Origin: Tatumella citrea
GTDB lineage: Bacteria; Pseudomonadota; Gammaproteobacteria; Enterobacterales; Enterobacteriaceae
DNA length: 64,000 nucleotides
NCBI RefSeq assembly: GCF_002163585.1
Contig: NZ_CP015579.1
Coordinates: 2,976,001-3,040,000 of the forward strand
Reading direction: 5' to 3'
Part shown: positions 53,203-53,258 of the stretch, in pieces
How positions within the stretch are numbered: the stretch's first letter is position 1
Layout: every line of letters begins with the position of its first letter
Position numbers and translations under genes: made by a program
The notes under the pieces: generated by a model
The model's input: the letters and a program-made list of their open reading frames with translations, nothing else
What the model was told of the DNA's origin: nothing
The model's database searches: none

Positions 53203-53258
53203 GGCAGGCAGGCAGGCAGGCAGGCAGGCAGGCAGGCAGGCAGGCAGGCAGGCAGGCA
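53203..53258. repeat. Tetranucleotide tract (GGCA)14
   Basis: Fourteen perfect GGCA units, 56 bp without interruption, about 365 bp upstream of the arnB start and about 110 bp upstream of the PmrA-like box. Tracts of this kind change length by slipped-strand mispairing. All frames through it are open, but only 20-codon micro-frames without an SD begin at it (53199 plus strand, 53259 minus strand). Confidence 0.97.

What the first reader, a model, noticed from the sequence alone, without database searches (positions are those of the whole stretch)
53203..53258. (GGCA)14 tract upstream of the lipid A modification operon: candidate phase-variation switch
Seen: 14 perfect tetranucleotide units between crr and arnB, about 110 bp upstream of a PmrA-like box. 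Known: tetranucleotide tracts of this size change length by slippage and switch LPS genes in Haemophilus and Neisseria. Inference: repeat number may set arnBCADTEF transcription by changing spacing or DNA bend, making Ara4N decoration and polymyxin tolerance phase-variable. I know of no such switch for arn in Enterobacterales.
Basis: partly seen in the sequence, partly recalled or inferred. Interest (0 to 1): 0.8.

Follow-up and report, generated by a model that had tools for sequence, protein, structure and literature searches.

The report
Unstable DNA repeat upstream of arn
A four-letter DNA repeat that has clearly been changing length lies between two genes of a Tatumella bacterium, upstream of the genes that decorate its outer membrane against polymyxin-like peptides, but it sits outside the part of the promoter that evolution has kept, so an expression switch is possible and not shown.

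Summary
In detail: a perfect (GGCA)14 tract (pure run 53202-53258), the only GGCA run of 4 or more units in this 4.49 Mb Tatumella genome. T. morbirosei has 25 perfect units at the same place. Both tracts are pure although four-fold sites of neighbouring genes differ by 26-43% and the upstream flank is hardly alignable, so the tract is turning over, most likely by slippage. The unit is the CAGG/CCTG repeat reported unstable in E. coli.

Control of arn is not supported by the anatomy. The tract lies in unconserved spacer. Sequence kept in five Tatumella species starts about 30 bp further down and peaks around a sigmaE-like element (53439-53466), 180 bp from the tract. The last full unit ends 365 bp before arnB in both alleles, so length changes cannot alter core-promoter spacing. 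They can only move a distal PmrA-like box (52901-52917), which leaves a nadA-like rheostat open. Other long arrays in Tatumella lie beside varied genes, which favours neutrality. Side finding: in this genome arn lacks the usual PmrA promoter layout and carries a sigmaE-like one.

The parts
53202..53258 (+). Pure tetranucleotide tract, (AGGC)14 plus A, read by the finding as (GGCA)14; unit class CAGG/CCTG
   Evidence: 25 units at the same place in T. morbirosei
52901..52917 (+). Distal PmrA-like box CTTAATATTATCTTAAC, 284 bp before the tract; inside the longest identical run (19 bp) that the spacer shares with T. morbirosei upstream of the tract; no such box of 11/12 or better in G002
   Evidence: 11/12 to the recalled consensus (26% of shuffles reach 11); identical run; function not shown
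53367..53394 (-). Two overlapping PmrA-like boxes (53367-53383 and 53378-53394), 108 and 119 bp after base 53258
   Evidence: 11/12 and 12/12 on the minus strand (1.7% of shuffles reach 12); TTAA and AAAA cores kept in five species
53439..53466 (+). SigmaE-like promoter element TGAACTT-N16-TCATA, probable arn core promoter
   Evidence: rule met in 5 of 6 Tatumella and 0 of 30 other arn upstream regions; GAACTTTT is the longest five-species invariant run between tract and ribosome-binding site
53623..54762 (+). arnB, first gene of arnBCADTEF
   Evidence: NF008658, 710.6 bits against cut-off 631
54764..60988 (+). arnC, arnA, arnD, arnT, arnE, arnF
   Evidence: each above its NCBIfam cut-off (arnC was scanned from its second codon)
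52261..52764 (+). crr, upstream neighbour; a terminator-like hairpin at 52793-52814 follows it
   Evidence: relatives upstream of arnB in the other five Tatumella genomes by tblastn; the name crr is recalled

Best explanation
The tract is a genuine CAGG/CCTG microsatellite, most likely present already in the common ancestor of this Tatumella and T. morbirosei, that keeps gaining and losing units by slippage (inferred from sequence). It sits in unconserved spacer DNA between the crr terminator and the arn promoter. The arn promoter proper is most likely inside the conserved block that begins near 53289, with PmrA-like boxes at 53367-53394 and a sigmaE-like element at 53439-53466 (inferred). Because the tract lies upstream of all of this and its proximal edge stays 365 bp from arnB, changes in unit number most likely leave arn transcription unchanged or alter it only slightly. 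It is mutable, and probably not a dedicated switch.
For: 14 against 25 units at the same site. Both tracts are pure although four-fold sites of crr and arnB, C, A, D, T differ by 26-43% and dS is 0.42-0.83, and the upstream flank 53125-53199 is only 40-48% identical in 25-base bins. With 0.2-0.3 substitutions per site per lineage an untouched 56 bp would stay pure with probability about 1e-5 to 5e-8 (rough Poisson model). CAGG/CCTG repeats are described as unstable on E. coli plasmids (PMC10849350, passages). Five-species invariance is 0-2 of 30 columns per bin across 53199-53288, 6 of 30 from 53289 and 13 of 30 in both bins of 53439-53498. Last full unit to ATG is 365 bp in both alleles, last unit to the 53378 box 120 and 119 bp. 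Long arrays elsewhere lie beside varied genes: 5 further GGCA tracts in other genomes, JGM118 arrays, three arrays at two places in this genome.
Against: The tract has been kept in two species, while no other tetranucleotide array of 4 or more copies was seen in the sampled parts of this genome. Its flanking lengths are almost unchanged (284 and 281 bp from the distal box, 365 and 365 bp to arnB) although the sequence diverged. PmrA-like boxes lie on both sides in the two species with the tract, and G002 lacks tract and distal box. Of the 5 GGCA tracts elsewhere, at least two lie upstream of genes that could be promoted from there. No expression data exist here, so neutrality is an inference from anatomy.
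Confidence: 0.6

Rival explanations
1. A nadA-like rheostat: PmrA (BasR) bound at the distal box 52901-52917 and at the proximal boxes 53367-53394 interact by looping, and unit number sets the spacing and helical phase between them (one unit is 4 bp, about 137 degrees), so that arn output varies in steps among cells.
For: PmrA-like boxes flank the tract in both species that have it, and the distal box is in the longest identical run (19 bp) of the spacer upstream of the tract. G002 lacks tract and distal box. A BasR orthologue of 71-77% identity is in 6 of 6 Tatumella genomes. In nadA, NadR operators flank a TAAA tract distal to the promoter and spacing is held to change output (PMC2791445, abstract and passages).
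Against: A box of 11/12 turns up in 26% of shuffles of this spacer. The boxes are in opposite orientation and 449 bp apart here. No IHF consensus (recalled) with at most 1 mismatch occurs in this genome's spacer, unlike nadA. A similar TTAA-N7-TTAA element lies between two convergent genes next to basS in this genome, so the motif alone is weak.
Confidence: 0.22
2. The tract is transcribed: an arn leader starting near the distal box carries the repeat, whose RNA hairpin grows with unit number and changes read-through, stability or translation.
For: As RNA the 14- and 25-unit tracts fold to -21.5 and -45.9 kcal/mol, z -5.6 and -14.0 against shuffles. The distal box resembles the arn box of another genus of the family (CTTAATATTATCCTAAG in L015).
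Against: The distal box is not followed by TANNNT at 9-11 nt in this genome, whereas 21 of 30 non-Tatumella arn upstream regions have such a pair somewhere in their last 500 bp. Between box and tract conservation with T. morbirosei is patchy, 20-81% per 25-base bin. One weak Rfam match in 52700-53700, far below its gathering score and not over the tract.
Confidence: 0.08
3. A phase-variable small reading frame: ATG at 53199 runs into the repeat and stops at TAA 53259, and unit number changes its frame.
For: The frame exists in the window sequence.
Against: No Shine-Dalgarno-like sequence precedes it by eye, and T. morbirosei has CATCAG directly before its tract, without that ATG.
Confidence: 0.02
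4. Assembly or sequencing artefact in tract length.
For: The 100-bp tract of T. morbirosei is in a whole-genome shotgun assembly and its exact unit number may be unreliable.
Against: Long tracts at the same place in two assemblies with different flanking sequence; this genome is in two contigs.
Confidence: 0.02

Closest known systems
nadA of Neisseria meningitidis (TAAA tract, NadR, IHF; PMC2791445, abstract and passages seen)
   Same: Tetranucleotide tract in a distal upstream region of an envelope gene, outside the core promoter, with candidate regulator sites on both sides.
   Different: There operators, IHF binding at the tract and expression differences were measured. Here the tract is 180 bp from the likely core promoter, the boxes are only motif matches, no IHF consensus was found in this genome's spacer, and no expression difference is known.
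Tetranucleotide contingency loci of LPS genes in Haemophilus influenzae (PMC2651432, search listing and start of abstract seen)
   Same: Tetranucleotide unit, LPS genes concerned.
   Different: As recalled, most of those lie inside reading frames and act by frameshift; this tract is intergenic and in no conserved frame.
CCTG/CAGG repeat of human myotonic dystrophy type 2, also studied on E. coli plasmids (PMC10849350, passages seen)
   Same: Same repeat unit; instability in an enterobacterial cell is reported there.
   Different: A human disease repeat cloned on plasmids; here a natural chromosomal tract.
PmrA (BasR)-dependent arn promoter as in E. coli, Yersinia and Serratia
   Same: Same operon; a BasR orthologue is present.
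   Different: The box-10 nt-TANNNT layout is missing in this genome; a sigmaE-like element is kept in the genus instead.

Membership tests
Simple-sequence-repeat phase-variable (contingency) locus | Long, pure tract of a unit able to slip | tested here: met
   14 pure units; CAGG/CCTG unit reported unstable in E. coli
Simple-sequence-repeat phase-variable (contingency) locus | Length differs between related genomes at the same site | tested here: met
   14 against 25 units, two species; 4 of 6 Tatumella genomes lack the tract at arn
Simple-sequence-repeat phase-variable (contingency) locus | Length differs within one strain or population | not testable with these tools
   one genome per species; no reads
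Simple-sequence-repeat phase-variable (contingency) locus | Tract in a reading frame or between core promoter elements | tested here: not met
   no conserved frame; 180 bp upstream of the likely core promoter, which is itself inferred
Simple-sequence-repeat phase-variable (contingency) locus | Expression of the gene changes with unit number | not testable with these tools
   no expression data
nadA-type distal-tract rheostat | Operators of one regulator on both sides of the tract | tested here: inconclusive
   PmrA-like boxes at 52901 and 53367-53394 by motif only; 26% of shuffles reach 11/12, 1.7% reach 12/12
nadA-type distal-tract rheostat | IHF site at the tract edge | tested here: not met
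   no match with at most 1 mismatch in this genome's crr-arnB spacer; two 1-mismatch matches in T. morbirosei, neither at the tract edge; a consensus scan does not exclude a divergent site
Canonical PmrA-activated arn promoter | PmrA box followed after 9-11 nt by TANNNT | tested here: not met
   none at 9/12 or better in this genome; among the other five Tatumella one match at 10/12 (T. morbirosei) and only 9/12 matches in G002, G005 and G001, none in G003; 21 of 30 non-Tatumella regions have one at 10/12 or better
SigmaE promoter | GGAACTT-N15..17-TC-type -10 (recalled) | tested here: inconclusive
   TGAACTT-N16-TCATA here; rule met in 5 of 6 species; 7% of shuffles of this spacer have a match; RpoE present in 6 of 6

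The most novel reading that the evidence does not exclude
The tract is a stochastic spacing device for arn: slippage of the CAGG repeat moves a distal BasR box relative to proximal BasR boxes and a sigmaE-type promoter, so that Tatumella populations carry a graded, heritable mixture of Ara4N decoration. It would be a repeat-driven phase-variable arn operon, of which no example was found in the paper searches made here.
Probability: 0.18. Interest if true: 0.75.

Novelty: new member of a known kind. Interest (0 to 1): 0.38.

Why it matters
If repeat number did set arn output, polymyxin tolerance in a plant- and food-associated enterobacterium would be heritably mixed within one clone, and tract length could be read from genome assemblies. 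Even if the tract is neutral, this is a natural chromosomal CAGG/CCTG microsatellite with a clear length difference between related species, and the region shows an apparent change of arn promoter type (PmrA layout missing, sigmaE-like element kept) that can be tested.

Tried and rejected
Rejected: (1) small frame through the tract, not shared by T. morbirosei. (2) Known RNA family over the tract: one weak match at 52775-52820, 20 bits against a gathering score of 55, over the crr terminator. (3) Convergence argument: Tatumella sp. JGM118 has (GGGCTTA)5.3 in the same spacer, which first looked like independent support, but 400 kb of that genome hold 8 arrays of 5 or more copies at 7 places, so it says little. 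(4) PhoP box: TGTTTA-N5-TGTGTA at 53136, 11/12, not matched in T. morbirosei, reached by 6.5% of shuffles. (5) Sigma-70 promoter next to the tract (53164-53192): in 52500-54300 5 sites were found against 3.8 expected. (6) Single-strand DNA folding of the tract: z -1.8 and +1.9, not informative. (7) The first alignment of spacers used three loci in the wrong orientation; redone. (8) The box beside basS was first taken as support for the motif, then found to lie between two convergent genes in this genome. (9) A plus-strand-only scan for PmrA boxes missed the minus-strand matches; redone on both strands.

Rules and circularity: the box-10 nt-TANNNT rule and the sigmaE rule were written after looking at some of the same sequences, so the counts describe rather than test. 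The PmrA, PhoP, IHF and sigmaE consensus strings are recalled and come from no call. Rows dropped: of the 80 loci, 19 were used as non-Tatumella arn upstream regions (the two Tatumella loci, L042, the Pseudomonas loci and all more distant loci were left out), plus 10 loci (L014-L019, L021-L024; weaker matches left out) and E. coli. L040 is the same locus as G003 and was counted once. G001 was left out of the alignments.

Full report
WHAT IS THERE. The window lies in a Tatumella genome of 4,491,252 bases in 2 contigs. Its nearest relatives among the genomes searched are T. morbirosei LMG 23360 (G004, ArnB 96% identical), G002 (91%), Tatumella sp. JGM118 (G003, 81%), G005 (79%) and G001 (65%). 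Between crr (stop ending at 52764) and arnB (ATG 53623) there is an 858-base spacer of 37% G+C. In it lies a perfect run of 57 bases, (AGGC)14 plus A, at 53202-53258. arnBCADTEF is complete by family models.

RARITY. No other GGCA run of 4 or more units exists in this genome. In the rest of the window and in 800 kb sampled from the genome no tetranucleotide array of 4 or more copies was seen. Arrays of other units do exist: three of 5 or more copies at two places in those 800 kb, one place between a lipoprotein-like and an integrase-like gene, the other among unrelated genes (gene names recalled from the translations). GGCA runs of 5.5 or more units were found in 5 of 295 genomes drawn from the family (T. 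morbirosei not drawn), and of 8 or more units in 1 of 369 drawn from the class, this genome. Within the genus 3 of 6 genomes have a run of 4.5 or more units, but only this one and T. morbirosei have it at arn; JGM118 has 17 units beside a DEAD-box helicase-like gene.

THE TRACT IS TURNING OVER. T. morbirosei has 25 pure units at the same position. From the last full unit to the arnB ATG is 365 bp in both; from the distal box to the tract 284 and 281 bp; so of the spacer between distal box and arnB nearly all of the length difference is the tract. The neighbouring genes differ at 26-43% of four-fold sites, and the 75 bases upstream of the tract are only 40-48% identical per 25-base bin, yet neither tract holds a substitution. 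Without slippage an untouched 56-base stretch would stay clean with probability of about 1e-5 to 5e-8 at 0.2-0.3 substitutions per site per lineage (a simple Poisson estimate). The unit is the CAGG/CCTG repeat, which a 2023 paper, seen in passages, describes as unstable on E. coli plasmids (PMC10849350). I take hypermutability as well supported on evolutionary evidence and untested within a strain.

DOES IT CONTROL ARN? The conserved part of the spacer does not include the tract. In the five-species alignment (G001 left out) 0-2 of 30 columns per bin are invariant across 53199-53288, 6 of 30 from 53289, and 13 of 30 in both bins of 53439-53498. The longest invariant run between tract and ribosome-binding site is GAACTTTT (53440-53447), part of TGAACTT-N16-TCATA in this genome, T. 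morbirosei and G002, and of GGAACTT-N16-TCTTA in G003 and G005. That resembles a sigmaE promoter (consensus recalled). The rule is met in 5 of 6 Tatumella spacers and 0 of 30 other arn upstream regions; 5-16% of shuffled spacers contain a match, so conservation rather than the match is the evidence. RpoE is present in 6 of 6. The usual enterobacterial arrangement, a PmrA box followed after about 10 nt by TANNNT, occurs at 10/12 or better in 21 of 30 non-Tatumella arn regions and, even at 9/12, not in this genome; T. morbirosei has one such match at 10/12, G002, G005 and G001 have matches at 9/12 only, G003 none. A normal-looking box stands 63 bp before the eptA-like gene here (CTTAAGGTTTTCCTAAT, 11/12), so the regulon itself seems intact; BasR is 76% identical to that of E. 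coli.

FLANKING BOXES. PmrA-like boxes do lie on both sides of the tract: 52901-52917 (plus strand, 11/12) and 53367-53394 (minus strand, 11/12 and 12/12). The distal one is inside the longest identical run, 19 bases, that the spacer shares with T. morbirosei upstream of the tract; a run that long is expected about 0.002 times at the local identity of 55%. G002 has no tract and no box of 11/12 or better upstream. This is the best argument for function, and it recalls nadA, where NadR operators flank a TAAA tract (PMC2791445, abstract and passages). Against it: an 11/12 box occurs in 26% of shuffles, the boxes point in opposite directions, and no IHF consensus was found in this genome's spacer.

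THE NEUTRAL CASE. The five other GGCA tracts seen (gene names recalled) lie between a DEAD-box helicase and a monooxygenase gene; about 105 bp after pgpA and 630 bp before a type VI secretion gene; about 220 bp before an frmR-like gene; about 340 bp before an Rpn-like gene; and 40 bp after an inverse autotransporter-like gene. Three of the five are thus upstream of some gene at a distance, which fits either reading; none is next to LPS genes as far as the translations show. JGM118 carries 8 arrays of 5 or more copies at 7 places in 400 kb, mostly intergenic and beside varied genes, transporters among them, against none in 400 kb of T. morbirosei. Tatumella spacers therefore grow tandem arrays beside genes of many kinds.

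CONCLUSION. Shown: the tract, its purity, its length difference between species, its place outside the conserved block, its fixed distance to arnB. Inferred: slippage; the sigmaE-like promoter; near-neutrality for arn. Open: a nadA-like rheostat through the distal box, which I put at about one in five.

PAPERS. Four searches of the open library for repeat-driven variation of arn or of lipid A genes gave no title or abstract start that reports one (all 7 and 1 hits listed; 20 of 28 listed; 15 of 93 listed). One of these papers, on colistin heteroresistance in Enterobacter, was checked in passages: phase variation appears there only in its reference list (PMC9832134). Two searches for arn with RpoE gave no report of a sigmaE arn promoter (no hits; 7 listed, PMC8151780 seen in passages, which describes BasS/R control of arn in E. 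coli). Two searches for Tatumella with tandem repeats or polymyxin listed nothing on this locus. Subscription papers are not held.

Noticed in passing
window 53439-53466; L010, L011, L012, L013: The arn promoter of Tatumella looks rewired: the PmrA box-10 nt-TANNNT layout is missing in this genome (one 10/12 match in T. morbirosei) and a sigmaE-like GAACTT-N16-TC[AT]TA is kept in 5 of 6 species but in 0 of 30 other arn regions.
   Followed up: partly
G003 (Tatumella sp. JGM118): L188-L196: This genome is rich in tandem arrays of 4-9 base units: 8 of 5 or more copies at 7 places in 400 kb, against 0 in 400 kb of T. morbirosei and 3 in 800 kb of the window's genome. Cause unknown.
   Followed up: partly
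L230:7593-7790 (G000:C1 about 307,600): Compound array of (CAACAGC)7.7, (CCGAAAA)4.3 and (CAAGGG)12.8 near an integrase-like gene in the window's own genome.
   Followed up: no
window 61020-63136, minus strand: A sensor kinase and response regulator resembling CpxA and CpxR/CreB, with every listed NCBIfam match below its cut-off, convergent with arnF. All 6 Tatumella genomes have a BasR-family relative 8-9 kb from arnB on the opposite strand.
   Followed up: no
L180:9179-9195 (G000:C1:1909179): A TTAA-N7-TTAA element found downstream of basS in 5 of 6 Tatumella genomes; in this genome it lies between the 3' ends of basS and a PAP2-family gene, where no promoter is expected.
   Followed up: no
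window 33178-33839 and 32809-33116: Long tandem arrays (164- and 116-base units, the latter containing a tRNA-like sequence by eye) listed by the repeat finder.
   Followed up: no
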